A DNA stretch of 43,905 nucleotides from an uncultured Aureispira sp. (GTDB lineage: Bacteria; Bacteroidota; Bacteroidia; Chitinophagales; Saprospiraceae). The notes under the pieces were generated by a model that was given only the letters and a program-made list of their open reading frames with translations, did not search any database and was not told the DNA's origin. The stretch lies in NCBI GenBank assembly GCA_937942475.1, contig CALDEP010000030.1, positions 1 to 43,905 of the forward strand. Direction: 5' to 3'. Both the position numbers and the translations under genes were made by a program. How positions within the stretch are numbered: position 1 is the stretch's first letter; each line of letters opens with the position of its first letter. Below are positions 116-29,584 of this stretch, in pieces.

Positions 116-186
116 GTTTTGGGGATTTTTTATTTTGATAATAAGAATAACAAAAATTAAATACCTAATGAAGTTTAAAATAATAA

Positions 187-194
187 TATTTTTG
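187..194 (+). promoter_or_regulatory. candidate Bacteroidota -7 box upstream of the glycosyltransferase
   Basis: TATTTTTG matches the TAnnTTTG -7 consensus of Bacteroidota primary sigma promoters and lies 108 bases upstream of the ATG at 303. No convincing -33 TTG at the usual spacing was seen, so this is tentative in AT-rich DNA. Confidence 0.3.
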
Positions 195-302
195 CAATCT
201 TGAGTAGTTCACACAAAAAGATTCTAAAGCTTTGAATATATTCCAATCCATCTCACTTTTTTTATAGCTTTACAGCTCGGTTTCTTCCGATAAACAACAA
301 CT

Positions 303-12600: not shown

Positions 12601-13382
12601 CAACAGGAACACTTCCTGCTAATACAATAGATGATGTTACGGTATTTTTACAAAGCGGATGGCAAGAAGTACAACTTAACTTAATGGTTCCTGATACAGG
12701 AAACTATAATTTGGGTGGTGAAACTTTGAATCTATACGCCAATTCTACAGGAGCAGCTTATCCTTATAACGTTCCTGGTTTGATTTCTATCAACAGCAGT
12801 GCTGCGGCATCTAGCGATAGTTATTATTACTTTTATAACCTACAGGTTCGTGAACCTCGTTGTGTTTCACCAAAAGACACAGCAACAGCAGTCCCTGTCT
12901 CTAGTTACTTTACTTATACTGATAACAGCAATACATTTACCTTTATGGATGGTTCTTCTGGAGCTACTTCTTGGCTTTGGAACTTTGGAGATGGTAACAC
13001 CTCAACACAACAAAATCCTGTTCATACCTATGCGAATGGCAATGCTTACACGGTAACATTAAGCATCAATGGTGGCTCTTGTATTTCGACACAAGTAATT
13101 AATGGCATCTTAGGAATTGACAAACCTGCTAATGATAGACCTATGGTTAGATTGATGCCAAATCCTGCTAATAGTTGGGTACAATTAAACCTAGATAAAG
13201 CAGCAACGGAAGATTTAACCATACAGATTACTGCTGTGGATGGTAGAACACTTCAAACAGCGACACTAAAACAAGGTATTACAGAGTTTACACTTAATTT
13301 GGAACAATTACCTAGTGCCGTTTACTTTGTATCTATCTATGGCTTAAACTTCTCTGAAGTAAGAAAACTAGTCAAAGAATAA
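9675..13382 (+). CDS. M36 (fungalysin-like) metalloprotease, T9SS-secreted, paralog 1
   Basis: A 1235-residue zinc protease. Order of parts: signal peptide (1-20, ending near LFAQ); FTP/PepSY-like inhibitory propeptide (about 35-200, with THVYIQQVHQGIPVFNG and IDAQTGDLL); M36 catalytic region starting near 255; an inserted PA domain (about 450-540, with CDFTDKVLAAQNAGA); zinc helix HEYGH at 564-568 with Glu565 catalytic, and the third ligand Glu592 in GEGWSDW; PKD domain 1 (about 778-855, WLWDFGDG); a beta-rich linker; PKD domain 2 (about 1080-1142, WLWNFGDG); T9SS type A sorting domain (about 1158-1235, MPNPAN ... SAVYFVSIYG). All active-site residues are present, so it should be an active secreted protease after propeptide removal. 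First of three tandem paralogs. Its 5' region, with palindromes and a long leader, differs from those of the other two. Confidence 0.93.
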   Translation: MKVLQIALLCLLGGYMPLFAQSPTEIIQAFLDQKQQELNLTVEDTKNWVITSHHTSKQSGATHVYIQQVHQGIPVFNGIANFALKDKKVFSMGNRLLDHIAQNSKYSTPSILPKQAIILAAKALELSTPTQLKTIDALSNKHFIYNKGGISTENIPVQLMYFETETKEIRLVWDLSIYTLDAEHWWSVRIDAQTGDLLDQNDWITHCRFDGSPFTKCKHLHHKALAAPAPEKTLAPNQYTVFALPTESPAHGARTAVTNPSDPVSSPFGWHDTNGSLGAEYTITRGNNVFAYEDTSDNNGPGYSPDGGSILEFNFPYTNGLQPPNYIDAAVTNLFYMNNMMHDIWYRYGFDEASGNFQQNNYGNGGQAGDYVRAETQDGSGTANANFATPPDGFRPRMQMYVWPFSSNTGHFLTINSPSNIAGTYLAASASFGPPLPAISITADAVLLEDAVAPINDGCDAIVNPALLNGKIVLIDQGTCDFTDKVLAAQNAGAVAVVIVNTVGFLFVVGGVPTSPITIPTIMILPASANAIKTALAAGPVSASVDNAGISDKDSDLDNGIIAHEYGHGISTRLTGGGNNSGCLRNAEQMGEGWSDWFGLMLTLEPGDLGPDVRGIGTYVRGQPNTGPGIRPAPYSTDFAINPYTYGNSNNTATISEPHGVGFIFATALWDLNWALVDFYGGTPDPDLYNGSGGNNIAMNLVIEGLKLQPCSPGMIDGRDAILQADQLLYSGAHECLIWEVFANRGFGYSATQGSSASRTDQTEAFDVSPVCLVAAAPPLANFAPSSINSCVSTISFIDSSSSTPQQWLWDFGDGATSTQQNPSHSYISDGVYVVSLVVSNSMGSDTMTQQITITLPPPPIAVGDEVCAGDSAMLVATGTGSIQWKNTSNTILTQGDTLWVPNIGSIQTYYAENLTGTPSQFIGAADSSIGAGSINNSAYGALNFRADQPLEIVSTWVYAQGSSIRTFFLAEGENTTGTLPANTIDDVTVFLQSGWQEVQLNLMVPDTGNYNLGGETLNLYANSTGAAYPYNVPGLISINSSAAASSDSYYYFYNLQVREPRCVSPKDTATAVPVSSYFTYTDNSNTFTFMDGSSGATSWLWNFGDGNTSTQQNPVHTYANGNAYTVTLSINGGSCISTQVINGILGIDKPANDRPMVRLMPNPANSWVQLNLDKAATEDLTIQITAVDGRTLQTATLKQGITEFTLNLEQLPSAVYFVSIYGLNFSEVRKLVKE

Positions 13383-13440
13383 CATTTAATATCAATTTGA
13401 AGATTTGAAGGTTAGTATTCTATATGATAAAAAAAGCATA

Positions 13441-13486
13441 CCATCCCTACTCTTGAAATTTCAATAGTAGGGATTTTTCCTTTTTA
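13441..13486 (+). terminator. rho-independent terminator after M36 paralog 1
   Basis: Stem ATCCCTACT (13443-13451) pairs with AGTAGGGAT (13466-13474); the loop contains TTGAAATTTCAA, which can extend the stem. A T-rich run (TTTTTCCTTTTT) follows. It lies about 60 bases after the stop and separates paralog 1 from paralog 2 transcriptionally. Confidence 0.85.
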
Positions 13487-13594
13487 TCAAAACTAAGGAT
13501 TCTAAAATCACATTCTTTATATTTTTAGAAATTTTAGCTCTATTTTTTCCATTCTTACAACTGATAATTTCTACAAAGTAAACTTTTGCCAAAT

Positions 13595-13609
13595 AAAAAT
13601 GTATTTTTG
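13595..13609 (+). promoter_or_regulatory. candidate -7 promoter element of M36 paralog 2
   Basis: AAAAATGTATTTTTG contains TATTTTTG (13602-13609), a match to TAnnTTTG, 61 bases before the ATG at 13671. The identical 15-mer occurs at the matching place upstream of paralog 3 (17580-17594). No TTG at the standard -33 spacing is evident; one TTG sits closer, 13 bases from the -7 box. Confidence 0.5.
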
Positions 13610-13670
13610 CAAAGCCTCTCCCGTAATACAGTATTAAATATTTTTACAGTACAACAAATTCAATCTTATT

Positions 13671-16600
13671 ATGAAACAACTCGCCTTTACTATACTGGGA
13701 CTTCTACTCGGTACAGTAACATTACTCGGTCAAAATCCGTCTACGGTCATTCAGCAGTTTTTGGATAAAAATTATGCTGAACAGAAATTAACACAACAAG
13801 ATATTAACAACTGGAGTATTACTAGTCATCATACCTCCAATACAAGTGGTGTTACCCATGTTTATATCCAACAAAAACACCAAGGTATTTCAGTCTCTAA
13901 TGGCGTTGCCAACTTTGCCATAAAAGAAGGAAAAGTCCTTAGTATGGGAAACCGCTTGGTGACAAGACTAAGCCAAAAAGCAAACTACACCAGCCCTGCT
14001 ATTAATCCAGTACAGGCGATCCAATCTGCTGCAAAACAATTGGATTTAAAAACACCAACAGGATTGAAAGCTTTAGAGCCAATCGACAAACAACATTTCA
14101 TTTATAATACTGGAGGTATTTCAAAAGAAAATATCCCTGTCCGCTTGATGTATCATGCGGTATCTGACATGGAAGTAAAATTAGTTTGGGATTTGTCTAT
14201 CTACACCTTAGATGCCGAACATTGGTGGTCGGTGCGCATTGATGCTCAAACAGGGGATTTACTGGATCAAAACGATTGGGTCGCTCACTGTAACTTCGAG
14301 CACTCTCCTTTTAGCAAATGTAATAACAAGGAACACGCAAGTATTCTAAAAACACCTGCTGATTTTATCGCTCCAGAAACCATGTTGCAACCAGATCAAT
14401 ATACTGTATTTGCACTTCCGTTAGAAAGTCCAAATCATGGTGCCCGTTCTATGGTAACCAATCCTGCGGATACGCTTGCTTCTCCTTATGGATGGCACGA
14501 TACTAATGGGAATAGTGGTGCAGAATACACGATTACAAGAGGAAATAACGTCTTTGCTTATGACGATGTGGCGGATAATAATGCCCCAGGCTTTAGCCCA
14601 GATGGTAATGCTGTTTTGGAATTTAATTTCCCTTACAATGGGACTGCCAATCCTAGTACTTATCAAGCAGCAGCCATTACAAACTTGTTCTATATGAACA
14701 ATATGATGCATGATGTTTGGTATCGCTATGGTTTTGATGAAGCCAGTGGAAACTTCCAATCGAACAACTATGGTCGTGGTGGAACAGACGACGATCACGT
14801 CTTTGCAGAAGCACAAGATGGTGGAGGAACCAACAATGCAAACTTTGCCACACCTCCAGATGGTTTCAATCCAAGAATGCAAATGTATTTGTGGAATAGC
14901 GCTGGTGGTTCTGGTGGTAGTTACTTAGACGTAAATAGCCCCGCAGGAATAGCTGGTAGTTATGGAGCTACCGATGCTGGTTTTGGTCCAGGTCTTCCTG
15001 CGACTCCAATTACAGCTGATTTTGCTTTAGTAGAAGACAATACGGCTCCAATTAATGATGGTTGCGAAACGATTACAAATCCAGCCGCTTTGGTAGGAAA
15101 AATTGCCGTGATTGATCGTGGTGCTTGTTCTTTTGTTATAAAAGTAGAAGCCGCTCAAAATGCAGGTGCTTTGGCTGTTATTATTGTTAATAATGTAGCA
15201 GGTGCCCCCATCCAAATGGGTGGAGCAAGTAATACGATTACAATTCCATCTATTATGATTGATATGACTGATGGAACGAACATAAAAGCCCAAATGGCGG
15301 CAGGAACCGTTAACGGTACCATTAGTAATGGTGGTGTTGCTAGTAATGTCAAAGATGGCGATTTGGACAATGGAATTATTGCCCATGAATATGGACACGG
15401 TATTTCTACCCGTTTAACAGGTGGTGCCAACAATTCTAACTGTTTGAGTAATTCAGAGCAAATGGGAGAAGGTTGGAGCGACTGGTTTGGTTTAATGCTA
15501 ACCATCGAACCAGGTGATCTTGGACCTGATGTTCGTGGAATTGGAACCTATGCTTCTAACCAATTGGTTACAGGACAAGGAATCCGCCCAGCGCCTTATT
15601 CTACTGATTTTGCAGTGAATGGATTTACTTATGGTAATTCTAATAATGCAGGTCAAATATCGGAACCTCATGGTGTTGGTTTTATTTTTGCAACCGTTTT
15701 ATGGGATTTAAACTGGGCATTGGTAGACCAATATGGTGGTGTGCCTGATCCAGATTTGTACAATGGTACTGGTGGAAATAATATCGCTATGAATTTAGTG
15801 ATTGAAGGCTTAAAATTACAACCTTGTAATCCTGGTATGATTGACGGTCGTGATGCAATTATATTAGCCGATCAAATGTTATATGGTGGAATTCATAGAT
15901 GTTTAATTTGGGAAACCTTTGCGAATAGAGGTTTTGGATACAGTGCCAATCAAGGTAGTTCTGCTAGTCGTTCAGACCAAACGGAAGCCTTCGATTTACC
16001 ACCTATCTGTCAAACGCCAACAACTGCTCCTGTGGCTTTATTTAGCCCAAGCAGTGCTAGTTCTTGTATTACAACCATTTCATTTACAGACAATAGTACG
16101 GACATTCCTCAATCTTGGTTGTGGAACTTTGGAGATGGCAACACCTCTACGATTCAAAACCCAACACATACTTATAGTAATAGTGGGGTTTATACGGTTC
16201 AATTAGTGGTAACGAATACTGTTGGAATGGACTCAACAACCCAACAAGTAACCATTGCGTTGCCTCCTTCTCCTATTGCAAATGACATCGAAGTTTGTGC
16301 TGGAGATACGGCTTATGTTCCTGTAACTGCTACAGGTTTTGCACAATGGAAAAATACAGCAAACAATATTATTTATACGGGAGATACTTTAGTGGTTCCT
16401 AATGTAGGGTCGGTTCAAACTTACTATGTTGAAAATGTAGTGGGTACGCCTTCTCAATATGTTGGTCCAACAACTGGATCTATTGGAGCGGGCAACTATC
16501 ATGCTTCTGCTTATCATGGAGCGTTAAACTTTACAGCCAACCAAAGCTTTGAAATTGCATCTGCTTGGGTGGATGCAGATGGCGCAGGTCCTCGTACCTT

Positions 16601-17417
16601 CTATTTGGCAAGTGGTGTTAACAATGATGGAACAGCTCCTACTGGAGCTGGAATTGTAGACCAAGTAACGGTCAATTTAGTTGATGGTGTACAGCGTATC
16701 AATTTGAATTTGATGGTTCCTGCTGCTGGTAATTATAATATTGGTGGTAATAATGTTGACTTATTTAGAAATAGTGGTGGTGCAAACTTCCCTTATACTT
16801 TAGCGGGTTATATGACGATTAATAATTCTTCGGCTACTACTAATCCTACTGGTTATTACTATTACTTATATGACTTAGAAATCCGTGATCCACAATGTAT
16901 TTCTGCTTTAGATACAGTTACCGTAAGTCCAGTCGTTAGCAATTTTTCTTATGTTGACAACAATGGAACGATAACGCTTACAGATGCTTCTAGTGGTGCA
17001 ACAAGTTGGTTCTGGGATTTTGGGGATAACAATACTTCTACACAACAAAACCCTGTACACACTTACGCTACATCAGGTGCTTATACCATTACCTTAACAA
17101 TTAATAATGGTGCTTGTACTAGTACTCAAACCTTCACGATAACAGTGGGTATCCATCAAATTGGTGCGCCAAGATTGAATATTATGTTACTTCCTAATCC
17201 AACTAGTGGATTGGCTAGCATTTTATTAGACAAAGCGGTTGAAGAAGATTTAACGGTTTTAGTGACAGACATCAATGGAAAAACAGTTCAAACAGCGCTT
17301 ATTATTAATGGAGAAAGTCGCCTAGAATTAGACTTAACTCAATTACCTTCAGCTGTTTATTTAGTACAAATTAAAGGAAACAACTTCTCAGAAGTTAGAA
17401 AATTAGTGGTTGAATAA
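13671..17417 (+). CDS. M36 (fungalysin-like) metalloprotease, T9SS-secreted, paralog 2
   Basis: A 1248-residue paralog with the same architecture as its upstream neighbour: signal peptide (1-20, ending near LLGQ), FTP/PepSY propeptide (about 35-205), M36 catalytic domain with an inserted PA domain (about 455-550, CSFVIKVEAAQNAGA), zinc motif HEYGH at 572-576, third ligand Glu600 in GEGWSDW, PKD domain at about 787-860 (WLWNFGDG), second PKD at about 1088-1150 (WFWDFGDN), and T9SS sorting domain from about 1169 (LLPNPTSG ... SAVYLVQIKG). Conservation is strongest in the propeptide end and catalytic helix, and weaker in the PKD and linker parts. Some propeptide stretches (for example 14212-14240) are nucleotide-identical to paralog 1, suggesting recent duplication or gene conversion. 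It has its own promoter-like element and terminator, so it is not read only from the upstream gene. Confidence 0.93.
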   Translation: MKQLAFTILGLLLGTVTLLGQNPSTVIQQFLDKNYAEQKLTQQDINNWSITSHHTSNTSGVTHVYIQQKHQGISVSNGVANFAIKEGKVLSMGNRLVTRLSQKANYTSPAINPVQAIQSAAKQLDLKTPTGLKALEPIDKQHFIYNTGGISKENIPVRLMYHAVSDMEVKLVWDLSIYTLDAEHWWSVRIDAQTGDLLDQNDWVAHCNFEHSPFSKCNNKEHASILKTPADFIAPETMLQPDQYTVFALPLESPNHGARSMVTNPADTLASPYGWHDTNGNSGAEYTITRGNNVFAYDDVADNNAPGFSPDGNAVLEFNFPYNGTANPSTYQAAAITNLFYMNNMMHDVWYRYGFDEASGNFQSNNYGRGGTDDDHVFAEAQDGGGTNNANFATPPDGFNPRMQMYLWNSAGGSGGSYLDVNSPAGIAGSYGATDAGFGPGLPATPITADFALVEDNTAPINDGCETITNPAALVGKIAVIDRGACSFVIKVEAAQNAGALAVIIVNNVAGAPIQMGGASNTITIPSIMIDMTDGTNIKAQMAAGTVNGTISNGGVASNVKDGDLDNGIIAHEYGHGISTRLTGGANNSNCLSNSEQMGEGWSDWFGLMLTIEPGDLGPDVRGIGTYASNQLVTGQGIRPAPYSTDFAVNGFTYGNSNNAGQISEPHGVGFIFATVLWDLNWALVDQYGGVPDPDLYNGTGGNNIAMNLVIEGLKLQPCNPGMIDGRDAIILADQMLYGGIHRCLIWETFANRGFGYSANQGSSASRSDQTEAFDLPPICQTPTTAPVALFSPSSASSCITTISFTDNSTDIPQSWLWNFGDGNTSTIQNPTHTYSNSGVYTVQLVVTNTVGMDSTTQQVTIALPPSPIANDIEVCAGDTAYVPVTATGFAQWKNTANNIIYTGDTLVVPNVGSVQTYYVENVVGTPSQYVGPTTGSIGAGNYHASAYHGALNFTANQSFEIASAWVDADGAGPRTFYLASGVNNDGTAPTGAGIVDQVTVNLVDGVQRINLNLMVPAAGNYNIGGNNVDLFRNSGGANFPYTLAGYMTINNSSATTNPTGYYYYLYDLEIRDPQCISALDTVTVSPVVSNFSYVDNNGTITLTDASSGATSWFWDFGDNNTSTQQNPVHTYATSGAYTITLTINNGACTSTQTFTITVGIHQIGAPRLNIMLLPNPTSGLASILLDKAVEEDLTVLVTDINGKTVQTALIINGESRLELDLTQLPSAVYLVQIKGNNFSEVRKLVVE

Positions 17418-17449
17418 GCTTGCAATTAATTTTGTTATAATATAAATAC

Positions 17450-17486
17450 AAAGCCATCTCTTCATAAAAGGGATGGCTTTTTTTAA
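17450..17486 (+). terminator. rho-independent terminator after M36 paralog 2
   Basis: Stem AAAGCCATC (17450-17458) pairs with GATGGCTTT (17472-17480), extended by two inner pairs and a 9-base loop, and is followed by a T run. It lies 33 bases after the stop. Confidence 0.88.
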
Positions 17487-17579
17487 TAAAGCATCTTCTC
17501 TAAGGCTATTTTGTTCTTTTTAAGTAAAATTTAACTTTTTGTTAAGAGATAATTCCAATCCTTTCGTTTTTTTTGAAAC

Positions 17580-17594
17580 AAAAATGTATTTTTG
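17580..17594 (+). promoter_or_regulatory. candidate -7 promoter element of M36 paralog 3
   Basis: The same AAAAATGTATTTTTG 15-mer as upstream of paralog 2, with TATTTTTG at 17587-17594, 48 bases before the ATG at 17643. The shared element suggests that paralogs 2 and 3 were duplicated together with their promoter. Confidence 0.5.
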
Positions 17595-17642
17595 ATTGTA
17601 CGTTCCCCTTAGACATAATAAATCCTATAGATTTACCTACGT

Positions 17643-20600
17643 ATGAAACTACTTTCCCTTACTATCTTCAGCATCCTATTTAATACCCTCTTAATCGCAC
17701 AAAGTCCTAGAATCATTATTCAGGATTTTTTAGATAAGGTTCAAATTGAACAAAAACTTCATCCTTTAGATATTACGAATTGGAACATAACCAATTCGCA
17801 CACTTCTTCGACTAGTAAGCTAACACATGTTTATATTCAACAAACCTACCAAGGCATTCCTGTGTCCAATGGGCTTGCTAATTTTGCCCTCAGAGGCGAG
17901 GAAATACTTAGCATGGGAAATCGCTTGGTGGCTAATCTTAGTCAAAAAGTAAGCACCAAAAGTCCAGTCCTTACGCCAGTACAAGCCATTCAATTTGCAG
18001 CCGAACAGCTCCAAATAGCTCCTCCTAGCACATTAAGCCTCCTAGAAACGCTCCATTCTTCCCATTTTATTTATAATAAAGGCGGCATCTCTAGAGAACC
18101 CATTCCTGTTCGTCTGATGTACACGTCCACTTCTGAAACAGAAGTTAAACTCGTTTGGGATTTATCCATTTACACCTTAGATTCCAAACATAGATGGTCG
18201 GTCCAAATTGATGCACAAAATGGTCAGTTAATCCAACAAAACGACTGGGTCTTGCATTGCAATTTTAAGCACGATGCGTTTTCAAACTGTTCCCATTCAA
18301 AAGCAAATACCCCCGCAAAAACACCTTATCCAAAAGCACCAGAAACACTTGCACAACCCGATCAATACACCGTTTTTGCCCTTCCAATAGAAAGCCCAAA
18401 TCACGGCAGTCGCTCCATTGTAAGCAATCCAGCAGATGTCCTTTCTTCTCCCTATGGATGGCACGACACCAATGCAGTTGCAGGGGCAGAATATACGATT
18501 ACCAAAGGCAACAATGTCTATGCTTATGAAGATATAGACAGTAATAATCTTTCTGGATTTAGCCCAGATGGAAGCAGCTTGCTTGAATTTAACTTCCCTT
18601 ACAGCTCAACAGGAAATCCTAGCTTATACCAAGCTGCTGCCATCACTAATTTGTTTTACATGAATAATATGATGCATGACATTTGGTATCATTATGGCTT
18701 TGATGAGGCTAGTGGTAATTTTCAAAACAACAACTATGGACGGGGCGGCACCGCTATGGACGGTGACGAAGTTCTTGCCGAAGCGCAAGACAGTGCGAAT
18801 CTGAACAATGCCAATTTCATGGTTCCTCCCGATGGCAACCAACCGAGAATGCAGCTTTTTTTGTGGAACAGCACAGGAAGTAATTTAGGCAACTATTTAA
18901 ACATCAATAGCCCTTCTAATATAGCAGGAAATTATACCGCAGCAGATGCAACCTTTGGTCCAGGTTTGCCACTTAGTGCCCTTACAGGAGATTTAGTTTT
19001 AATAGAAGACAATACGCCACCGACCAATGATGCTTGTGAAACAATTACAAATTCAGCTGCTTTGTCTGGGAAAATTGCACTCATAAATTTAGGTAATTGC
19101 AACTTTGTTTTCAAGGTAGAAGCCGCTCAAAATGCAGGAGCTATTGCTGTTATTATCATCAACAATATCTCTGCTCCTCCAGTTCAAATGCTAGGAACAA
19201 GCACCAGCATTAACATTCCATCTATTATGATTGGTCAAAATGATGGTCTGATTATAAAAAACGAACTTCTTCTAGGAAATATCAACGTAACGATAAGCAA
19301 CAATGGAAGTGTGAACAATATTAGGGATAGCGATTTAGACAATGGAATCATTGCCCACGAATATGGGCATGGTATTTCTGAACGCTTAACGGGCGGCGCC
19401 AATAATGTGGAATGCTTGACCAATCCAGAGCAAATGGGTGAAGGTTGGAGCGATTGGTTTGCCTTAATGTTAACGATTGAACCTGGCGATTTGGGAAGCG
19501 ATTCTAGAGGCTTAGGCACCTATGTTTCCAATCAAGTAATTACGGGACAAGGCTTACGCCCTGCGCCTTATTCTACCGATTTTGCGGTAAATTCATTTAC
19601 TTACGGAGCCTCCAACAATGTTGGGCAAATCTCAGAACCACATGGTATTGGATTTATATTTGCAACCGTTTTATGGGATCTGAATTGGGCTTTAATTGAT
19701 TTCTATGGAGGCGTTCCTGATGCCGATTTATATACAGGTACTGGTGGTAATAACATTGCCATGCAGTTGGTCATTGAAGCACTCAAAATCCAACCTTGCC
19801 AACCCGGTATGATTGATGGTAGAAATGCTATTTTAAGTGCTGACCAAGCTCTATATGGTGGCATCCACCAATGTTTAATCTGGAACGTTTTTGCCACTAG
19901 AGGATTCGGGTTTAGTGCCAGTCAAGGTTCTCCTTTCAACCGCTCTGATCAAACAGAAGCTTTTGATTTGCCAACGAATTGCCAAGTGCCAACCATGCCT
20001 CCTACCGCTCTATTTAGTGGTAATAATTCTTCTTGCAGACCCAATGTTTCCTTTTTTGACAACAGCACAGGTGTTCCCCAATCTTGGTTTTGGGACTTTG
20101 GAGATGGCAATACCTCTATGCTTCAAAATCCTACCTATTCTTACAGTCTTAGTGGTTCTTATACAGCCAAACTAGTCGTTTCCAACTCCTTTGGATCAGA
20201 TTCGACAACGCAACAAATCACAATTTCCAATTTACCGCCAACACCAATTGCCAACAACCTTGAACTTTGTTTAGGAGATACGGCTTATGTTGCGGCTACA
20301 GGAACAGGAATTATTTACTGGAAAGATAGTTCCAATCGCCTCATTCAAGTCGGTGATACCCTCTGCATCCCCAATATAACAACCGAACAAACCTATTATG
20401 CAGAGAATGGCATCAATTCTCCTCTCTGGTTTATTGGTCCTCTTAATAACACGATTGGATTTGGCTCCTACCATGCTAGCAATTATTATGGGGCGCTTAA
20501 TATAAGCAGCCAACGAAGCCTTGAAATTTTATCTGCTTGGGTAAATGCCGATGGTGCAGGTCCTCGTACCTTCTATTTGGCGAATGGTATTAATAACTAT

Positions 20601-21392
20601 GGTATTCCTCCAAATCCAAATGCTATTGTAGACCAAGTTACCGTTAATTTAGTGGATGGTCCTCAACGTGTTGATTTGAATTTACTGGTCCCAGAAGCGG
20701 GTCAATATAATATTGGTGGTGATAATGTCGATCTGTATAGAAATAGTTCGGGCGCTAATTATCCTTACATTCTAAATGGCTACATGAGTATTGATAGTTC
20801 CTCTAGTTTTAATACTGCAACTCAATCTTATTATTATTTTTATAATTTAAGGGTTCGTGGGCCACTATGTATTTCCACCTTAGATACCGTTATTATAAGT
20901 CCTATTATAAGTGCTTTTTCTTTTATTGATAATGGCAATGGCTCCTTTACGTTTAATGATGCTTCAACAGCTGCCAATACTTGGCTTTGGGACTTTGGTG
21001 ATAATACAACTTCAAACCAAACCAACCCAACACATACTTATAGTAACGCTGGAAATTATACGGTTTCTCTGACCATTAATAATGGTGCTTGTACTCGTAC
21101 ACAAACGGTTTCTGTTCCTGTTGGACTTTCGCAGACAGCTAAGACTAAACTTGAAATTAAATTATTGCCCAATCCTACCGATGGCTTCACACAACTTATA
21201 TTGAGTCGTGCTTTTAGTGATAATTTGGAAGTTCAATTGACCGATATCAATGGCAAACAGATTCAAAGCCTACAAATTCCAAGTGGTCAAACTAGCTTAA
21301 ACTTAGATTTGTCGAAACTCTCTGCAGCCGTTTATTTGGTTCACATCAAAGGAAATAACGTTTCAGATGTTCGTAAAGTAATTGTTAGATGA
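17643..21392 (+). CDS. M36 (fungalysin-like) metalloprotease, T9SS-secreted, paralog 3
   Basis: A 1249-residue protein, the third tandem copy. Signal peptide 1-19 (ending near LLIAQ); FTP/PepSY propeptide; M36 catalytic domain with PA insertion (about 455-550); zinc helix HEYGH at 572-576; Glu600 in GEGWSDW; PKD domains near 785-860 (WFWDFGDG) and 1089-1150 (WLWDFGDN); T9SS sorting domain from about 1173 (LLPNPTDG ... AAVYLVHIKG). It is closer to paralog 2 than to paralog 1 (shared GPRTFYLA and DQVTVNLVDG blocks). The catalytic centre is intact. Differences near the active site (GISERLTGG for GISTRLTGG, DWFALMLT for DWFGLMLT) and in the propeptide (DSKHRWSVQ for DAEHWWSVR) may mean a shifted substrate range or looser inhibition. 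No clear terminator follows; an AT-rich inverted repeat lies about 110 bases downstream. Confidence 0.93.
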   Translation: MKLLSLTIFSILFNTLLIAQSPRIIIQDFLDKVQIEQKLHPLDITNWNITNSHTSSTSKLTHVYIQQTYQGIPVSNGLANFALRGEEILSMGNRLVANLSQKVSTKSPVLTPVQAIQFAAEQLQIAPPSTLSLLETLHSSHFIYNKGGISREPIPVRLMYTSTSETEVKLVWDLSIYTLDSKHRWSVQIDAQNGQLIQQNDWVLHCNFKHDAFSNCSHSKANTPAKTPYPKAPETLAQPDQYTVFALPIESPNHGSRSIVSNPADVLSSPYGWHDTNAVAGAEYTITKGNNVYAYEDIDSNNLSGFSPDGSSLLEFNFPYSSTGNPSLYQAAAITNLFYMNNMMHDIWYHYGFDEASGNFQNNNYGRGGTAMDGDEVLAEAQDSANLNNANFMVPPDGNQPRMQLFLWNSTGSNLGNYLNINSPSNIAGNYTAADATFGPGLPLSALTGDLVLIEDNTPPTNDACETITNSAALSGKIALINLGNCNFVFKVEAAQNAGAIAVIIINNISAPPVQMLGTSTSINIPSIMIGQNDGLIIKNELLLGNINVTISNNGSVNNIRDSDLDNGIIAHEYGHGISERLTGGANNVECLTNPEQMGEGWSDWFALMLTIEPGDLGSDSRGLGTYVSNQVITGQGLRPAPYSTDFAVNSFTYGASNNVGQISEPHGIGFIFATVLWDLNWALIDFYGGVPDADLYTGTGGNNIAMQLVIEALKIQPCQPGMIDGRNAILSADQALYGGIHQCLIWNVFATRGFGFSASQGSPFNRSDQTEAFDLPTNCQVPTMPPTALFSGNNSSCRPNVSFFDNSTGVPQSWFWDFGDGNTSMLQNPTYSYSLSGSYTAKLVVSNSFGSDSTTQQITISNLPPTPIANNLELCLGDTAYVAATGTGIIYWKDSSNRLIQVGDTLCIPNITTEQTYYAENGINSPLWFIGPLNNTIGFGSYHASNYYGALNISSQRSLEILSAWVNADGAGPRTFYLANGINNYGIPPNPNAIVDQVTVNLVDGPQRVDLNLLVPEAGQYNIGGDNVDLYRNSSGANYPYILNGYMSIDSSSSFNTATQSYYYFYNLRVRGPLCISTLDTVIISPIISAFSFIDNGNGSFTFNDASTAANTWLWDFGDNTTSNQTNPTHTYSNAGNYTVSLTINNGACTRTQTVSVPVGLSQTAKTKLEIKLLPNPTDGFTQLILSRAFSDNLEVQLTDINGKQIQSLQIPSGQTSLNLDLSKLSAAVYLVHIKGNNVSDVRKVIVR

Positions 21393-21857: not shown

Positions 21858-24800
21858 ATGGAGAATCAGGAGAAAATAGTTCAACCAACGAACTATATCA
21901 GTGCGTTACCTTATTTATCAGTACTTCCCATCACGGAGCAGTGTTTGGACTTTTCTATCATGGACAAGGTTCAGTTAGGCTTGACCGAAAATGTGCTTCA
22001 ACAGCTCTTGAGTACCGAAACAGACATTGCCTGTTCTATCCCTCTAGGCATAGAAAAAAACACGGCTCCTTCCAAGATTAGCCAGCACAAAGCACTACAG
22101 AAAACCTTTGAGAATTTCCAGCAACAAAAAGGAGGACTTTCTATTGGTTATCCAATCCTTTTGATGGAAGACGACAAACTTGGACGTCCTATTGCTGCAC
22201 CACTTTTTTTGTGGAAAGTAACCTTAAATATTCTTGCCGACAGCAATATGGCTTGGAACTTAACGCCTTTGAATGAGAACAAAGGTTATTTGAATCCAAT
22301 TCTTAAAAACTATCTAGAAGCACGTTTTGAACTAGATTGGGAACAAACAATCGGATTAATTGATACCGTAGATTCAAAAGTAGTCGAAGAAACTTGTCTT
22401 GCATTAGTCAAGGAATTAAACTTGGAGCACCATGCCGACATTAGGATTGAAGCCTGCCCTTTGCCCGATCAGATTCCAGAAAATATTATTCTAAATTCAA
22501 TTATCTTGGGTAATTTTGAACCCATTACGTTAAAAGAAGCCAAAAAATTACCAAAAAACCTCAAACCTAGAGAGCGCAAACAATGGAAAACAAAGGTAGC
22601 AGCACTTCCTAGTAATTCAGCACAGGATGAACTTATTGGGACAATTTTCAACGGACATCATGTTGTAGCAGAAGGGATTTCTAGTACAGGAAAGACGCAT
22701 ATTATTGCCTCTATTTTGCCAAGTTTGTTGACAGACAAGGGCGCTGCCTTGATTATATCCCCACAATTTTCTTCTTTCAAAGACATCCAACATCATTTAG
22801 AAAACCTTGGTATCAAAGACATTGGCGTACTTTCTTTGCAAGATGAAGTCTTGGACAAAGAACGCATGATTGAGTATCTAGAAACTATGCCTAAGCGAAC
22901 TCGCACGCTTTCTAGTTTTGATAATGTTACCTATAGCAAACAACTCAACAAGTATATGCAGCTTCGTTCCACGCTAGAACAAGCTTATGACAGTGTACAT
23001 CAGTCTACTATTAATAGTTGGAATTGGACGGAATTGGTGGGTCAATGTTTGTTGCAACATCGCAAAAGTGACAAACAAATTCTAGGGCGTTTTTTAGATA
23101 ATCAACTCTTCACCTTCACTGCTAAGGAACATTATATTATTAGCCGAGAATTGGGTGAACATTATGTTCATTATCATCGCCTAGATGCTTTAAAACATCC
23201 TTTAAATGCCTTACACGGTCGCTTTTTTAGCGATGAAAGTAGTATTGAAGAGACTCGCTCGGAAGCAAAAACAGGCTTAAACCTCTATCGTTACAAAACC
23301 AATAGCCTTTATCAAAGTTTTTTAGTTTTTGTTGGTAATTATGGTGAACATCTAAAATTTCAATACCGTGATTTTGTTGCGAATATGGAGCAGCAAATTG
23401 ATACGATTGAACGCAATTTGCATCTTTATAATGACTTGTATGGAGAGGCATTTGACAAACAAAGTAGTTTCCAAAATGCCAAATTAAAATTACTAAGTGT
23501 CTTCTCTAGAAGACATCAAGAGATTCGTGCCGCAAAAGAACAATTGCTAGAAGATTATCAAACGCTTCAAGAATTTTATAAAAATAATAGCTTCTTCAAA
23601 ACAGAGTTTCCTGATATTAAAGCAGAATCGAAACTCGCAGATGTTGAAGTAAAATTAGAAAAAGTACGAACAGCTTTGCAGGATTGGTCTTTAACGATTC
23701 CTACTTTAGTAAAAAAACAGACGCAAGAATTATCAAAAGAAACGGAATTTCCAGAATCCTTTAGAGAACAATATGAAGAACTAGAAAACTGGTTAAAAAA
23801 GCTCATTCAACAAATCAATGACGCTGAATTATTACGCAAAGAGGTCACAGAACCTAAAGGCAAAATTTCAGCGATTGAATCCGCCTTGTTTACGATCTTA
23901 TTGCAATTCCAAAAACTAGAAAATGAGTGGCGAGACATGGACGCTTATTATCAATGGCGTCGTTCTTGGCTGACCATAGATTCAAAAACTCAAAAAGTAG
24001 TTCAAGCCTTGGTCAATGCAGGCACACAAGATTGGATTTCAGGCTTTAACAGTTGGTTTTACCACCAAATCTTAACACAGCAATACTCCATTCATTTGCC
24101 TTTAGGGACGCAAACTGAAGCACTACCTTTTGATCCTTACATGCACACCTTGCAAGATATTCAAAAACGCATTAGCCAAAAGGCAAATGTAATGACCAAA
24201 GAGCGTCAAGGCGAACAAATTAAACGCATCAAAAAGGAGAAAGATTTAACCTTAACCAATGCTCGTCCTATTTTCAAGAACAAGAAAATAAAGGATCTTT
24301 TGCAATGGATTGGTTTGGAACACATTGGCGATGTTTTCCCCATTGTCTTAGCGACTCCAGAAATGGCACAGCAACTTTTGGGCTTAAAGGTGTCTACCTT
24401 TGATTTGGTCATCGTAGACAATGCCCATGATATTTCTTCAAAAATAGGGGTAGATTTATTAAAATTAGGCAACCAACATATTGTCTTAGGTAGACCTGCT
24501 GAAGTAGAAAAATCAGAGGATAGCAGTTTGCTAAAATGGATGCTGGCGCAAAAAGGACGTCGTTATCAATATTTAGAACACATTCATTCCAAAGACGCTG
24601 CCGAGCGCACACGCATTAACAAAGTAGCGACTCAAGAACCAAATGCATTTCAAATTTCGGTTGCGGAATATCTCAAAGAATACATTGACGAAAATCGTCT
24701 AGAATTCAATAAATCGGTTGAGGGTGTTTTAGTTGAATTGGTCATCGCTCCTAAATATGCTGGACAACATCCCATTGCCGTTATTTGTGATGGCGGAACC

Positions 24801-24983
24801 TTGTCGCAAGCTAAATATGATTTTCAATTGGCGGTAGATAAGGTGCGTATTTTAACCAGCCAAGCTTATCAAATTCAGTATATTTGGTCGGTTGATTGGT
24901 GGAAAAATACAGAGAAGGCGTTGAATCCTTTGTTGGCTTTTGTGATTCAATGGGACAAGCAACATGCTGGTGATCATCAATAA
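21858..24983 (+). CDS. DUF4011-like N-terminus + SF1 helicase RecA1 half + degenerate Vsr/MTES_1575-like C-terminus
   Basis: A 1041-residue cytoplasmic protein. Residues 1-240 resemble the DUF4011 domain that opens large SF1 helicase-nuclease proteins (LSIGYPILLMEDDKLG ... APLFLWKVTL ... LNPILKNYLE). Walker A GISSTGKT is at 273-280. About 550 residues of mostly helical, coiled-coil-prone sequence follow (strongest at 545-690). A Walker B-like strand FDLVIVDNAHD is at 848-858 and a motif III-like IVLGRP at 875-880, where GDpxQ would be expected. No RecA2 domain or motifs IV-VI follow; instead, from about 930, there is a Vsr-like block VELVIAPKYAG / AVICDGG / IQYIWSVDWW. The usual Asp and Glu catalytic positions read Glu (VEL for VDL) and Ile (ICDG for ECDG), so nuclease activity is doubtful. 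NTP binding looks possible; unwinding does not. DUF4011-helicase-Vsr relatives are associated with defence; this role is inferred. Confidence 0.65.
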   Translation: MENQEKIVQPTNYISALPYLSVLPITEQCLDFSIMDKVQLGLTENVLQQLLSTETDIACSIPLGIEKNTAPSKISQHKALQKTFENFQQQKGGLSIGYPILLMEDDKLGRPIAAPLFLWKVTLNILADSNMAWNLTPLNENKGYLNPILKNYLEARFELDWEQTIGLIDTVDSKVVEETCLALVKELNLEHHADIRIEACPLPDQIPENIILNSIILGNFEPITLKEAKKLPKNLKPRERKQWKTKVAALPSNSAQDELIGTIFNGHHVVAEGISSTGKTHIIASILPSLLTDKGAALIISPQFSSFKDIQHHLENLGIKDIGVLSLQDEVLDKERMIEYLETMPKRTRTLSSFDNVTYSKQLNKYMQLRSTLEQAYDSVHQSTINSWNWTELVGQCLLQHRKSDKQILGRFLDNQLFTFTAKEHYIISRELGEHYVHYHRLDALKHPLNALHGRFFSDESSIEETRSEAKTGLNLYRYKTNSLYQSFLVFVGNYGEHLKFQYRDFVANMEQQIDTIERNLHLYNDLYGEAFDKQSSFQNAKLKLLSVFSRRHQEIRAAKEQLLEDYQTLQEFYKNNSFFKTEFPDIKAESKLADVEVKLEKVRTALQDWSLTIPTLVKKQTQELSKETEFPESFREQYEELENWLKKLIQQINDAELLRKEVTEPKGKISAIESALFTILLQFQKLENEWRDMDAYYQWRRSWLTIDSKTQKVVQALVNAGTQDWISGFNSWFYHQILTQQYSIHLPLGTQTEALPFDPYMHTLQDIQKRISQKANVMTKERQGEQIKRIKKEKDLTLTNARPIFKNKKIKDLLQWIGLEHIGDVFPIVLATPEMAQQLLGLKVSTFDLVIVDNAHDISSKIGVDLLKLGNQHIVLGRPAEVEKSEDSSLLKWMLAQKGRRYQYLEHIHSKDAAERTRINKVATQEPNAFQISVAEYLKEYIDENRLEFNKSVEGVLVELVIAPKYAGQHPIAVICDGGTLSQAKYDFQLAVDKVRILTSQAYQIQYIWSVDWWKNTEKALNPLLAFVIQWDKQHAGDHQ

Positions 24984-25016
24984 ATTAAATCTTAATTTTA
25001 ATTCAACTACAATACA

Positions 25017-25565
25017 ATGAGTTTGAGCTACTGCTTAATAGCAGGGCATGATCAATACCTGAATTTAAGTCCTTATTTTCAAAGCATAAAAAAAGACTAT
25101 GTGTTTCTTGAAAAAGCCTTGAATTTTAATTTAGCAGCAATATTCTCCTTACCGACTGAATCAAGTAGTATTAAAGACGACACGATTCATTATTTACCTA
25201 TTCCTGCAATTGAAAATGTGCCTAATTTCATCTTAAACACTCAAGAGCTTATCGCTAAATTAACGAGTCAGAAAAGCTTGTTCAATGCTGTTGATGAAGC
25301 TTTATTTAGTTTTTTTAGTGTGCAATATGAGAACAACAGGAAGTCGCTCAGATTAATTGACCATCCTAGAGAGAGAAATCTTATTAAAGAAGGCTACTGC
25401 AATCATTGCCCTAAATCAGGTGAGCTATGCACGCATTTTAATGCCTGTCAATTTGTATTTTGCTATACCAGCGAAGCCTTTCTGCTAGAATTAAACACTT
25501 GTCTTAACTTGGCTTTGAAAGCACAAAAAACCAATATCAAAACCCTTTATTTGGGTCTATTATAA
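25017..25565 (+). CDS. hypothetical protein with a Cys/His cluster, paired with the DUF4011-like gene
   Basis: A 182-residue protein that I do not recognise. It has no signal peptide or membrane segment. Near residues 125-145 there is a compact Cys/His group: YCNHCP, then C six residues on, TH, and another C (C-x2-C-x6-C-x-H-x3-C), which could bind zinc or a metal cluster; a further Cys lies just after (FCY). The rest is mixed helix and strand with a DHPRERN patch upstream of the cluster. It starts 33 bases after the DUF4011-like gene on the same strand, so the two are likely co-transcribed and may act together. The Cys spacing is not one I can match to a named domain. Confidence 0.6.
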   Translation: MSLSYCLIAGHDQYLNLSPYFQSIKKDYVFLEKALNFNLAAIFSLPTESSSIKDDTIHYLPIPAIENVPNFILNTQELIAKLTSQKSLFNAVDEALFSFFSVQYENNRKSLRLIDHPRERNLIKEGYCNHCPKSGELCTHFNACQFVFCYTSEAFLLELNTCLNLALKAQKTNIKTLYLGLL

Positions 25566-25599
25566 TAATAAATGTACAAGCATTATCACCATAAAAATA

Positions 25600-25722
25600 G
25601 TGTGCATACTATTCCTTACGCTCTGCTGTATTGGATGTGCGTCAAAAGAAAGTAGTCATCTGGAAAATATAGAGGAGAGTGTAATAGGCCATTATATGGC
25701 TCGAGTAATTACCGTTCATTAA
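25600..25722 (+). CDS. possible small lipoprotein (GTG start) or gene remnant
   Basis: The frame ending with TAA at 25720-25722 reads, from the GTG at 25600, a hydrophobic stretch VCILFLTLCCIGC followed by ASKESSH and ending in GHYMARVITVH (40 aa). The LCCIGC segment looks like a lipobox. There is no ATG in frame and the n-region before the hydrophobic stretch would need a non-standard start to gain a Lys, so it may be a decayed lipoprotein gene. Confidence 0.22.
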   Translation: MCILFLTLCCIGCASKESSHLENIEESVIGHYMARVITVH

Positions 25723-25749
25723 TCCATTCAAAGCAAGAAGCTTCATTGA

Positions 25750-27165: not shown

Positions 27166-28371
27166 CTAAGCCAATTCCATTGCCAAATCCATATCTTTCC
27201 AATGTAAGGCAATTTTAGCGGCGGTGGTTCCTTTTGGAAAATACTCTGTTGCTGCTGTTGATTCAATAGAAGGATCGGCTCCATGTTTCAATAAAAGCGC
27301 TGCCATATCTAAAGGACCGCCAGTATCTGCCAAATAATGCGCTGGAGTCCAACCATTTGCATCTTGAGCATTAATAGTAGTTTTTTTAGCCAGTTTAAAA
27401 AATAGTTTTAAACCATCTATTCGTCCACTTCCTGCTGTTTGGTGCAATAGAGTCACTTGATTCCAAGCTTTTTCTTCAAAGTTTGCGCCTTTTTTGTATA
27501 ATAATTCTAGAACACGCCCCACTCCTGCCGAACAAGCAACTCGCAAAGGAGAAATTCCTCGATGATCTGTTTGTGTAACAGAAACGCCTCCTTTCACCAA
27601 TTCTTTGATGACCTCCAAAGCATTCAAATAGTCCAAATGCTCAAAAGGAGCCCAAGTTTGACGAGCAATATTCCGCTGCTCTTTTAGCGTCATCAATCGT
27701 CCAGGTCTTGGATGGTATTTATCATAGTTATAATAATAAGTCAAATAACCTTTCTCCAAAGTACAGCGAACAGGAACTCCATTGACCTCATCGTTATGCT
27801 CCCAGTTGTCTACCCTAGTACTATGCAAGGTCCATAAGGCTTGTAATAATGCTGTACTCCCATTTTGAGTCACTGAATTAACATCTGCACCCAATTTCAG
27901 CAAGGATTTAACAACGCCTACATTCCCTAAAGCACTAGCAATTAGCAAAGGCGTATTTCCATCCGCATCTTTTAAATCCTTGTCGTAACCACTTTTAACC
28001 AAACTAACCACCAAACTTGCAAAATTAGAGGCAGCAGCGATATGCAAAGCAGTCACACCAGAAGTAGTCTGTTGTGCCTTATTTGCGCCTGCTTTTAATA
28101 ATAAACTACAAATCGCTCGATGTCCTTCCCTAGCTGCTAAATGCAATGGATACAATTGATCCTTGTCTGGTAAATTAGGATTTGCACCATGCTTCAACAA
28201 GATTTTGACGACCTTTTGATGCCCCATCAAGGCGGCAGAATGCAAAGCTCCAGTATGCGTTCCAACAGCATTGGGATTCGCTCCTGCCTTCAACAACCTC
28301 AAGACATCTTTAGTAGCGCCACCTTCTGCTGCTAAAACCATTTCTGTATTTACTGAATTATTCATTTTCAA
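27166..28371 (-). CDS. ankyrin-repeat protein B
   Basis: A 401-residue soluble protein with no signal peptide or TM. About five ankyrin repeats fill residues 8-175 (GALHSAALMGHQKVVKILLKHGANPNLPD; YPLHLAAREGH; TALHIAAASNF; TPLLIASALGN; TALLQALW). A non-repeat insert of about 75 residues follows (180-255, with HLDYLNALEVIKELVKGG at its end), then three or four more repeats to the C-terminus (ISPLRVACSAGV; TLLHQTAGSGR; TPAHYLADTGG). It is a paralog of the adjacent upstream gene, with the same repeat-insert-repeat layout. The first ATG (28371) overlaps the upstream gene by 14 bases; the second ATG (28365) gives an 8-base overlap, typical of translational coupling. It should act by protein binding; the partner is unknown. 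Confidence 0.85.
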   Translation of the reverse strand: MKMNNSVNTEMVLAAEGGATKDVLRLLKAGANPNAVGTHTGALHSAALMGHQKVVKILLKHGANPNLPDKDQLYPLHLAAREGHRAICSLLLKAGANKAQQTTSGVTALHIAAASNFASLVVSLVKSGYDKDLKDADGNTPLLIASALGNVGVVKSLLKLGADVNSVTQNGSTALLQALWTLHSTRVDNWEHNDEVNGVPVRCTLEKGYLTYYYNYDKYHPRPGRLMTLKEQRNIARQTWAPFEHLDYLNALEVIKELVKGGVSVTQTDHRGISPLRVACSAGVGRVLELLYKKGANFEEKAWNQVTLLHQTAGSGRIDGLKLFFKLAKKTTINAQDANGWTPAHYLADTGGPLDMAALLLKHGADPSIESTAATEYFPKGTTAAKIALHWKDMDLAMELA

Positions 28372-29584
28372 TTTTTACTACTTTTAAAGCATCAGCCAAC
28401 ACTTTATCTTTCCAGTGCAAAGCTATATCTGCGGCGATCGACCCAAGCGGCATTTCTGTCCCTCTATTTTCTGTACTTTTTGTACTAGGATCGACCCCTT
28501 TTTCAAGCAACAAAGTTGCCATTGTGATAGGACCACCAATATCTGCCAAATAATGCAAGGCTGTCCATCCAAAATCGTCCACGGCATTCATATCTATCGA
28601 AGCACCCAAGTCCAAAAGCTGTTCTAAGCCATCTGAACGACCACTCCCAGAAGCACGATGCAAAGGTGTCGCATTTTGATACCCTTTAATGTCTAAAACA
28701 GCCCCTTTCTCGTACAATTTTTTAATTAGCACTGCTTCCCCAATATGGCAAGCCATAGCAATGGCTGTTTGTTTACTATCATTAAAAGCATTGATATCTG
28801 CAGAGGCTTCCATCAAAAGTACGGCTGTATATAAAGCCTCTAAATACCTCAAATGTTCTTTTGGTCCCCAAGCTTCTTCTAGATAAGCATGTTGCTCATT
28901 TATAGGTATAATAGCCCCTGAGTTTCTAGCTTTGCCTGCATAATGGTCATCATCCCGTCTAAAGCAACCTTTTAGAATCTCATAACGAACTAGTTTATCT
29001 GCTTCATTTTGCTCGTAAATCCAATCCCCAATTCGAGTACTATATAGTTGCCTCAAAGCCTTAATTAGAGGCGTATCCGCTCCAACATCTCTCGTGTCAA
29101 CATCTGCTCCTAGTTCAATTAATGCCCGAACTACTTCCAAGTTCCCCAAACTCGCTGCTGCTGCCAAAGGAGTCAATCCATTGGCATCTTTCGCTTCTAA
29201 ATTTGCGCCTTCTTTCACCAAAACCGCTACAACAGCTGGATGATTAGATGCCGCTGCTATATGCAAAGGCGTACCATTTTGCGAAGTAAGAACTTCAATA
29301 TCCGCTCCTGCTGCAAGGAGTTGTTCTGTAATGGAAACATGTCCTCTACTAACCGATAAATGTATTGGGTAATAACTTTGTGTATCTTTTATCTCTAGTT
29401 CTGCCCCTTTATCTAACAAAAGTGTCACTACTGCTTCGTGTCCATTAAAAGCAGCACAGTGCAAGGCACCAGAATTAGGTCCCATAGCACTAGGGTTAGC
29501 ACCTGCTTCCAGCGCTTTTACCACTCCTTCTAAATTCCCTGCTTCCGCAGCAACAATAATTTCTTGATCTAATGTTTCACTCAT
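28358..29584 (-). CDS. ankyrin-repeat protein A
   Basis: A 408-residue ankyrin protein, about the same length and layout as its neighbour: five N-terminal repeats (GALHCAAFNGHEAVVTLLLD; YPIHLSVSRGH; TPLHIAAASNH; TPLAAAASLGN; TPLIKALRQLY), an insert at about 180-265 ending in EHLRYLEALYTAVLLMEA, then repeats TAIAMACHIGE, TPLHRASGSGRSDGL and TALHYLADIGG. No signal peptide, so probably cytoplasmic. The two genes clearly come from a tandem duplication and are translationally coupled. They sit between DUF1573 (upstream) and yajC (downstream), a place normally without them. Function unknown; a scaffold or immunity-like role would be guesswork. Confidence 0.85.
   Translation of the reverse strand: MSETLDQEIIVAAEAGNLEGVVKALEAGANPSAMGPNSGALHCAAFNGHEAVVTLLLDKGAELEIKDTQSYYPIHLSVSRGHVSITEQLLAAGADIEVLTSQNGTPLHIAAASNHPAVVAVLVKEGANLEAKDANGLTPLAAAASLGNLEVVRALIELGADVDTRDVGADTPLIKALRQLYSTRIGDWIYEQNEADKLVRYEILKGCFRRDDDHYAGKARNSGAIIPINEQHAYLEEAWGPKEHLRYLEALYTAVLLMEASADINAFNDSKQTAIAMACHIGEAVLIKKLYEKGAVLDIKGYQNATPLHRASGSGRSDGLEQLLDLGASIDMNAVDDFGWTALHYLADIGGPITMATLLLEKGVDPSTKSTENRGTEMPLGSIAADIALHWKDKVLADALKVVKIENE

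What the first reader, a model, noticed from the sequence alone, without database searches (positions are those of the whole stretch)
21858..25565. DUF4011-like half-helicase with a degenerate Vsr-like tail, paired with a Cys-rich small protein
The 1041-aa protein keeps a DUF4011-like N-terminus, Walker A (GISSTGKT, 273-280) and a Walker B-like VDNAHD, but has no RecA2 motifs IV-VI. It passes directly to a Vsr/MTES_1575-like block (ICDGG, IWSVDWW) in which the usual catalytic Asp/Glu positions are changed. A 182-aa partner with a C-x2-C-x6-C-x-H-x3-C cluster follows after 33 bases. Full-length DUF4011-helicase-Vsr proteins are linked to defence; a version that has lost translocation and probably nuclease activity, plus a metal-binding partner, could be a sensor-type or repurposed system. 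The pair is the best candidate for an undescribed system here.
Basis: partly seen in the sequence, partly recalled or inferred. Interest (0 to 1): 0.68.

Follow-up and report, generated by a model that had tools for sequence, protein, structure and literature searches.

The report
Eroded helicase kept as scaffold
A bacterial protein related to DNA-cutting, virus-fighting motor enzymes has lost its motor and cutting parts yet is strictly preserved, so it has probably become a non-catalytic building block; the small neighbouring gene looks like a chance companion, not a partner.

Summary
The large gene is as described. The 1041-aa protein keeps a P-loop and a Vsr/MTES_1575-like tail but lacks exactly the second RecA domain: the family profile matches 1-914, then 1122-1236. 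Motif II is DN, not DE; the nuclease Glu is Ile. The 182-aa gene is absent beside the orthologue in the 8 other genus genomes, one with a 92% identical large gene; its only plausible relative lies on another contig of G002. The large gene is convergent to ybbR in 8 of 9 genus genomes, with dN/dS 0.05 against G001 and 0.012 in the P-loop segment. It belongs to an eroded clade, found here only in Saprospiraceae, beside intact ProA/Hhe-like proteins. Intact proteins conserve the motor (54-61% identity) over the helical insert (20%); long eroded forms conserve the insert (28%) over RecA1 (19-26%) though not over RecA2 (32%). Best reading: a pseudohelicase kept as an ATP-binding, non-hydrolysing scaffold. 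No usable structure model and no functional data.

The parts
21858..24983 (+). pseudohelicase gene, 1041 aa (short, RecA2-less form)
   Evidence: dN/dS 0.051 against the 92% identical orthologue in G001
21909..22577 (+). N-terminal DUF4011-type region (about residues 18-240)
   Evidence: no PF13195 hit; aligned by profile to intact paralogues that do hit it
22578..22892 (+). first half of RecA1 (residues 241-345) with Gln256 and Walker A 273-280
   Evidence: DEAD PF00270 36.2 bits, cut-off 26; dN/dS 0.012; Q256, G273, G278, K279, T280 invariant in the 10 rows of A1
22995..24152 (+). helical insert (residues 380-765)
   Evidence: 376-386 aa in 42 of 47 eroded rows; 384-388 aa also in 6 of 14 intact rows; profile matches 146 of 248 Saprospiraceae genomes at E<=1e-5, intact paralogues included
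24414..24431 (+). motif II VDNAHD (residues 853-858), Glu replaced by Asn
   Evidence: DE in 0 of 12 short, 9 of 30 long eroded and 14 of 14 intact rows
24573..24647 (+). linker where RecA2 is missing (residues 906-930)
   Evidence: profile positions 915-1121 absent; match splits at 24605/24606
24648..24938 (+). Vsr/MTES_1575-like domain (residues 931-1027), Glu of IECDG lost
   Evidence: PF18741 37.2 bits, cut-off 38.2; dN/dS 0.050 for residues 926-end
25017..25565 (+). 182-aa Cys-rich ORF, lineage-specific, not a conserved partner

Best explanation
The large gene encodes a pseudohelicase: a vertically inherited, non-catalytic relative of ProA/Hhe/DUF4011-type helicase-nucleases, kept for its roughly 380-aa helical insert and its binding surfaces. 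SHOWN by sequence: absence of RecA2, of the motif II Glu and of the nuclease Glu; strong purifying selection; fixed locus in the genus; constraint shifted from RecA1 to the insert in long eroded relatives. INFERRED: it binds ATP (Walker A, Gln256 and the motif II Asp are kept) but hydrolyses it little or not at all, since the catalytic Glu is Asn and no RecA2 supplies arginine fingers. ATP would act as a structural ligand or slow switch, and the insert and the altered Vsr-like domain would hold a partner protein or nucleic acid: a scaffold or regulator. The 182-aa gene is not part of it.
For: Absence of the RecA2 block. Motif II DE in 0 of 12 short rows and an acid at the nuclease Glu in 0 of 42 eroded rows. 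The 42 eroded rows split from the 14 intact ones with SH-aLRT 100 on a quick tree; RecA2 presence needs 2 changes, Walker A and DE 8 each.

dN/dS against G001 is 0.051 (ybbR 0.084, yajC 0.165); the P-loop segment 0.012 and the nuclease-like end 0.050.

Insert-to-RecA1 identity ratio: 0.35 in 10 intact rows (0 of 45 pairs above 1) and 1.27 in 30 long eroded rows (368 of 435 pairs above 1). Fixed synteny in 8 of 9 genus genomes.
Against: No structure: AlphaFold2 with 3 rows gave pLDDT 30. No biochemistry. In the short clade the insert-to-RecA1 ratio is 0.95 (7 of 21 pairs above 1) and the P-loop segment is the most constrained, so nucleotide still matters there. In long eroded rows RecA2 is the best conserved block (32%), and 22 of 30 keep GK[ST], 9 DE and 28 motif IV QR[ND]: some may hydrolyse ATP. 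Loss of the nuclease acid also occurs in 5 of 14 proteins with an intact motor. The insert length is not special to eroded forms: 384-388 aa in 6 of 14 intact rows. No partner was identified.
Confidence: 0.55

Rival explanations
1. It is a defence sensor: a stripped DUF4011-type protein that binds phage DNA or proteins through its insert and Vsr-like tail, with ATP binding as the switch, and signals to an effector elsewhere.
For: Kinship: intact paralogues match ProA, PDC-S37 and Hhe. Presence across genera is patchy: matches in 49 f1 genomes, of about 90 searched.
Against: Fixed chromosomal place in the genus and recurrent ordinary neighbours elsewhere; no PADLOC hit in the 10 neighbours scanned; no conserved effector or partner gene seen.
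Confidence: 0.17
2. It still works as an NTPase in trans: the half-helicase pairs with an intact paralogue (the C311 tandem pair) that supplies the missing RecA2 half.
For: PF13195 hits in 8 of 9 genus genomes. P-loop segment dN/dS 0.012.
Against: Motif II Glu is gone in 12 of 12 short rows. G007 has the short form and no PF13195 hit. I count 11 of the 49 f1 genomes with a family match that have a separate PF13195 hit; PF13195 is insensitive and missed at least one GPPGTGKS protein (L104 of G029).
Confidence: 0.12
3. It is the first reader's two-gene system: half-helicase plus Cys-rich metal-binding protein.
For: Same strand, 33 bases apart; the Cys cluster is real.
Against: Absent beside the orthologue in the 8 other genus genomes; the slot holds other genes or none; the one remote relative is on another contig of G002; weak codon signal.
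Confidence: 0.03
4. It is a decaying pseudogene.
For: Loss of motifs and of a whole domain.
Against: Open frame in 9 of 9 genus genomes and dN/dS of 0.012-0.066 against G001 in every segment, the nuclease-like end included.
Confidence: 0.01

Closest known systems
ProA (NCBIfam NF058533), Hhe (NF042953) and PADLOC PDC-S37 anti-phage helicase-nucleases
   Same: SF1 P-loop domain and MTES_1575/Vsr-like tail in the same order; DUF4011-type N-terminus by way of intact paralogues
   Different: RecA2 missing, motif II Glu and nuclease Glu lost, 1041 aa against models of 1550-1911 positions; 53 and 38 bits against cut-offs 1500 and 2000
Intact tandem paralogues in the same genome (G000:C311, 1342 and 1761 aa)
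   Same: Profile match over most of the shared length; insert of 384 aa in the shorter one
   Different: They keep GPPGTGKS, DEASQ, QGDERD and TRA
Core DUF4011 gene flanking cDHS1 in Pseudomonas aeruginosa (PMC10250203; two passages seen)
   Same: A DUF4011 protein found in every isolate, not mobile
   Different: There it borders a defence hotspot; here no defence gene was found among the 10 neighbours scanned
Yeast Utp25 pseudohelicase (PMC9539457; abstract, one figure legend and outline seen)
   Same: Helicase-like protein whose motifs are dispensable
   Different: DEAD-box-like protein of eukaryotic ribosome assembly with both domains; another lineage

Membership tests
SF1 helicase (UPF1/DNA2-like) | Walker A lysine | tested here: met
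   GISSTGKT; K279 invariant in the 10 rows of A1
SF1 helicase (UPF1/DNA2-like) | Motif II Asp-Glu | tested here: not met
   DNAHD; DE in 0 of 12 short rows
SF1 helicase (UPF1/DNA2-like) | Second RecA domain with motifs IV-VI | tested here: not met
   Profile 915-1121 absent; motifs IV-VI empty
MTES_1575 / Vsr-type nuclease (PF18741) | Score over Pfam cut-off | tested here: not met
   37.2 bits against 38.2, E 3.2e-9: related, just below
MTES_1575 / Vsr-type nuclease (PF18741) | Catalytic acids (first D, E of IECDG) | tested here: not met
   First D is E, E of IECDG is I; D of CDG kept. That these are the catalytic acids is recalled
DUF4011 (PF13195) | Score over Pfam cut-off | tested here: not met
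   No hit at E<=10; only by alignment to hitting paralogues
ProA / Hhe anti-phage proteins | Score over NCBIfam cut-off | tested here: not met
   53.2 against 1500 and 37.6 against 2000 bits
Mobile anti-phage defence system | Lies among defence genes at variable places | tested here: not met
   Beside ybbR in 8 of 9 genus genomes; no PADLOC hit in 10 neighbours
Mobile anti-phage defence system | Protects against phage | not testable with these tools
   needs a phage challenge
Pseudoenzyme under selection | Lost catalytic residues with purifying selection | tested here: met
Pseudoenzyme under selection | No catalytic activity | not testable with these tools
   needs purified protein

The most novel reading that the evidence does not exclude
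Saprospiraceae domesticated an anti-phage DUF4011 helicase-nuclease into a housekeeping structural protein. Its working part is the roughly 380-aa helical insert, while motor and nuclease eroded repeatedly (RecA2 at least twice, Walker A several times, down to forms of about 700-800 aa without a P-loop). It would be a pseudohelicase of a whole bacterial family with a role unrelated to defence.
Probability: 0.4. Interest if true: 0.66.

Novelty: new variant of a known kind. Interest (0 to 1): 0.5.

Why it matters
Defence enzymes are usually described as gained and lost wholesale. Here one bacterial family holds a graded series from intact proteins to a motor-less, nuclease-altered protein under strong selection. 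That makes it testable whether the helical insert of DUF4011-type enzymes has a function of its own, separable from the motor. It also warns that DUF4011- or MTES_1575-like hits alone should not be annotated as defence.

Tried and rejected
Two-gene system: rejected. Defence island: not supported for this locus. Pseudogene: rejected by dN/dS. Obligate coupling to intact paralogues: not supported. Structure prediction failed for both proteins: pLDDT 30.4 for the large one with 3 rows, 37.8 for the small one alone; I therefore made no fold search. Profile searches of solved structures recovered mainly P-loop parts of UPF1-like, DEAD-box, MTR4/DOB1-like and PriA helicases. Literature: searches on DUF4011, Hhe, ProA, MTES_1575, pseudo-helicase, Saprospiraceae with helicase and pseudoenzyme terms, and Aureispira with defense systems listed no paper whose title or shown abstract treats such an eroded family; only open-licence PMC papers were searched.

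Rows dropped: two fragments (L078, L099) before the motif table. Five rows of 701-794 aa before the tree. From the intact group four rows (three with enlarged inserts, one near-copy) before the constraint comparison, leaving 10; of the 12 short rows only 7 were used there (three near-copies, L055 and L059 left out). 'Intact' was defined by GPPGTGKS, so its Walker A count is circular; DEASQ, motif V and motif VI are independent. dS against G003 and G004 is saturated (2.6-4.1 for the large gene), so only the G001 ratio is used. The tree is of the quick kind, with long branches flagged and direction of change not inferred. Pairs are not independent.

Full report
What is there. The window is contig C30 of a 5.97-Mb draft genome, G000. 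The closest named records are Aureispira (orthologues 92% and 89% identical in L034 and L035), a genus of Saprospiraceae; below, 'genus' is g1 and 'family' f1 of the search tool. Pfam gives DEAD over residues 254-325 (36.2 bits, cut-off 26) and MTES_1575 over 931-1027 (37.2 bits, cut-off 38.2), and no DUF4011 at E<=10. NCBIfam gives weak ProA (53 bits) and Hhe (38 bits) matches, PADLOC weak PDC-S37 and Hhe.

The small gene is not a partner. Of 148 relatives, 17 have any hit to the 182-aa protein at E<=0.1, the own genome included; outside the own genome no hit lies on the contig of a large-gene match. G001, whose large gene is 92% identical, has no hit. The slot between the large gene and ybbR holds three genes in G001, one acyltransferase-like gene in G004 and G008 (related to one of the three; name by eye), and no ORF in G003, G005, G006 and G007, where the gap is 36-52 bases. 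Of 395 phylum-sample genomes 6, own included, have a hit at E<=0.01, none convincing. Plasmids, phages, PHROGs and viral contigs gave none. The one plausible relative is a 202-aa protein of G002 (27% over 122 aa) on contig C15, behind a carboxylase-like gene (name by eye), while the large gene of G002 is on C42. That protein finds only itself, the window gene and one broken frame in 100 genomes. The ORF is probably real: 1 of 20,000 shuffles has 182 open codons. Its codon signal is weak, 0.049, against 0.17-0.45 in 24 of 28 window ORFs of 150 aa or more; 9 spurious ORFs score -0.30 to 0.17, two of them above 0.049. It may be a young or acquired gene.

The large gene is fixed and constrained. 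The 8 other genus genomes (G001-G008) have orthologues of 28-92% identity with open frames. In 8 of 9 the gene is convergent to ybbR-yajC, with DUF1573 beyond (8 loci) and nusB (7 loci, the eighth contig ends earlier); G002 is the exception. dN/dS against G001 is 0.051 (dS 0.99), against ybbR 0.084, yajC 0.165, DUF1573 0.115 and the ankyrin genes 0.091 and 0.146. By segment it is 0.066 for the N-terminus, 0.012 for the P-loop half, 0.061 for the helical part, 0.040 for the Walker B part and 0.050 for the nuclease-like end. The protein is not decaying.

Its family. Of 148 relatives 56 have a match at E<=1e-3: 49 are f1 and 7 are of other families. About 90 of the 148 are f1 (handles G000-G089, inferred). 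I took 60 stretches and a profile found 63 family proteins in them and the window: 14 with GPPGTGKS and 49 without. The motif table holds 61 of these. The 14 intact proteins have DEASQ, QG(D/E)E, [TS]RA and QR[ND] in 14 of 14 each. Of 30 long eroded proteins (1193-1359 aa) 22 keep GK[ST], 9 DE, 0 QG(D/E)E, 4 [TS]RA and 28 QR[ND]. The 12 short forms (1004-1169 aa) keep GK[ST] in 11, DE in 0 and have no RecA2 (spacer 74-99 aa). Five rows of 701-794 aa have no P-loop. The Glu position of the nuclease is acidic in 9 of 14 intact rows and 0 of 42 long and short eroded rows. The family profile shows the RecA2 gap: window 1-914 then 1122-1236; G004 and G008 1-916 then 1127-1236; G083 5-904 then 1115-1233; G011 11-912 then 1124-1237.

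Tree and constraint. On a quick tree of 56 rows, with Walker A and the stretch from motif II to the nuclease left out, the 42 eroded rows split from the 14 intact ones (SH-aLRT 100). RecA2 presence needs 2 changes: the genus with G083 and G064, and separately G011. Walker A and DE need 8 each. Mean pairwise identity in 10 intact rows is 35% for the N-terminus, 54% for the P-loop half, 20% for the insert, 61% around motif II, 55% for RecA2 and 28% for the nuclease-like block. In 30 long eroded rows it is 20, 26, 28, 19, 32 and 25%. In 7 short rows it is 34, 41, 36, 37%, absent and 36%. The ratio of insert to RecA1 identity is 0.35, 1.27 and 0.95. So constraint has moved from RecA1 to the insert in long forms and levelled out in the short ones. 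In long forms RecA2 stays the best conserved block, against a simple picture of motor decay. The insert is 376-386 aa in 42 of 47 eroded rows (range 341-391); in intact rows it ranges from 268 to 816 aa, with 384-388 in 6 of 14, so its length may be inherited rather than new. With the insert profile 146 of 248 f1 genomes match at E<=1e-5, intact paralogues included.

Outside the family. In the phylum sample 49 of 296 genomes match the family profile at E<=1e-20, 46 of them outside f1. Of these I looked at 8 (L114-L121): all 8 carry a [TS]RA string and 7 a DEAS motif II, so they look intact; the [TS]RA string is a weak sign, since the eroded L087 shows one too. Of 7 matching genomes of other families I read 4 (L100-L103), all intact. 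The eroded clade thus appears restricted to Saprospiraceae in what I read.

Neighbourhood in other genera. Around the 49 proteins without GPPGTGKS, recurrent neighbours are a MORN-repeat lipoprotein upstream (14 loci), a divergent PAS-AraC-type regulator 166-494 bases away (11), a GH3/beta-lactamase-type protein downstream (8), an ABC ATPase (8, a common type), an N-acetylmuramoyl-alanine amidase (7) and a CcmB-like protein (5) (names by eye, from one member each). This looks like an ordinary chromosomal neighbourhood, different from the ybbR site of the genus. I ran no defence scan on these loci.

Mechanism. From recalled knowledge of SF1 enzymes, hydrolysis needs the motif II Glu and an arginine finger of RecA2, and translocation needs both RecA domains. 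The window protein lacks these but keeps what contacts ATP in RecA1. I infer ATP binding without turnover, as a structural ligand or slow switch, and a scaffold or regulator role carried by the insert and the altered Vsr-like domain. Partner and process are unknown; ATP binding itself is not tested. Turnover in trans and a defence-sensor role remain possible.

Known kind. It is related to ProA/Hhe/PDC-S37 but fails their scores and the SF1 and nuclease defining residues. The MTES_1575 REase as a Vsr-type domain in an SF1 helicase protein comes from PMC3710099 (passages seen). A core DUF4011 gene in P. aeruginosa (PMC10250203, two passages seen) is a precedent for non-mobile members, Utp25 (PMC9539457, abstract and outline seen) for a pseudohelicase.

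Noticed in passing
G000:C311, L056:3822-13229: Tandem intact DUF4011 helicase-nucleases of 1342 and 1761 aa, also adjacent in G004 (L064) and G003 (L106); the insert region of the larger one is about 815 aa instead of 384 and matches the insert profile in several overlapping pieces, as if duplicated.
   Followed up: partly
window 9675-21392: Three tandem proteins of 1235-1249 aa; the third is an M36 fungalysin with PA, PKD and Por-secretion domains, and the other two are its homologues (62-65% between different copies).
   Followed up: no
window 27166-29584: Two tandem ankyrin-repeat genes between DUF1573 and yajC, less conserved than their neighbours (85% and 76% identity to G001 against 86-87% for ybbR, yajC and DUF1573); one copy in G005 and G007, none seen in G006.
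   Followed up: partly
window 25566-25749: Intergenic stretch that seems to encode a short lipoprotein-like leader (read by eye), possibly a remnant gene.
   Followed up: no
L071, L074, L077, L078, L080, L084, L089, L090, L091, L093, L098: A PAS-AraC-type regulator (name by eye) is divergent from the eroded helicase gene in these 11 loci, a candidate regulator of it.
   Followed up: no
L073, L085, L086, L088, L092: Forms of 701-794 aa that lack the P-loop but keep the helical insert.
   Followed up: partly
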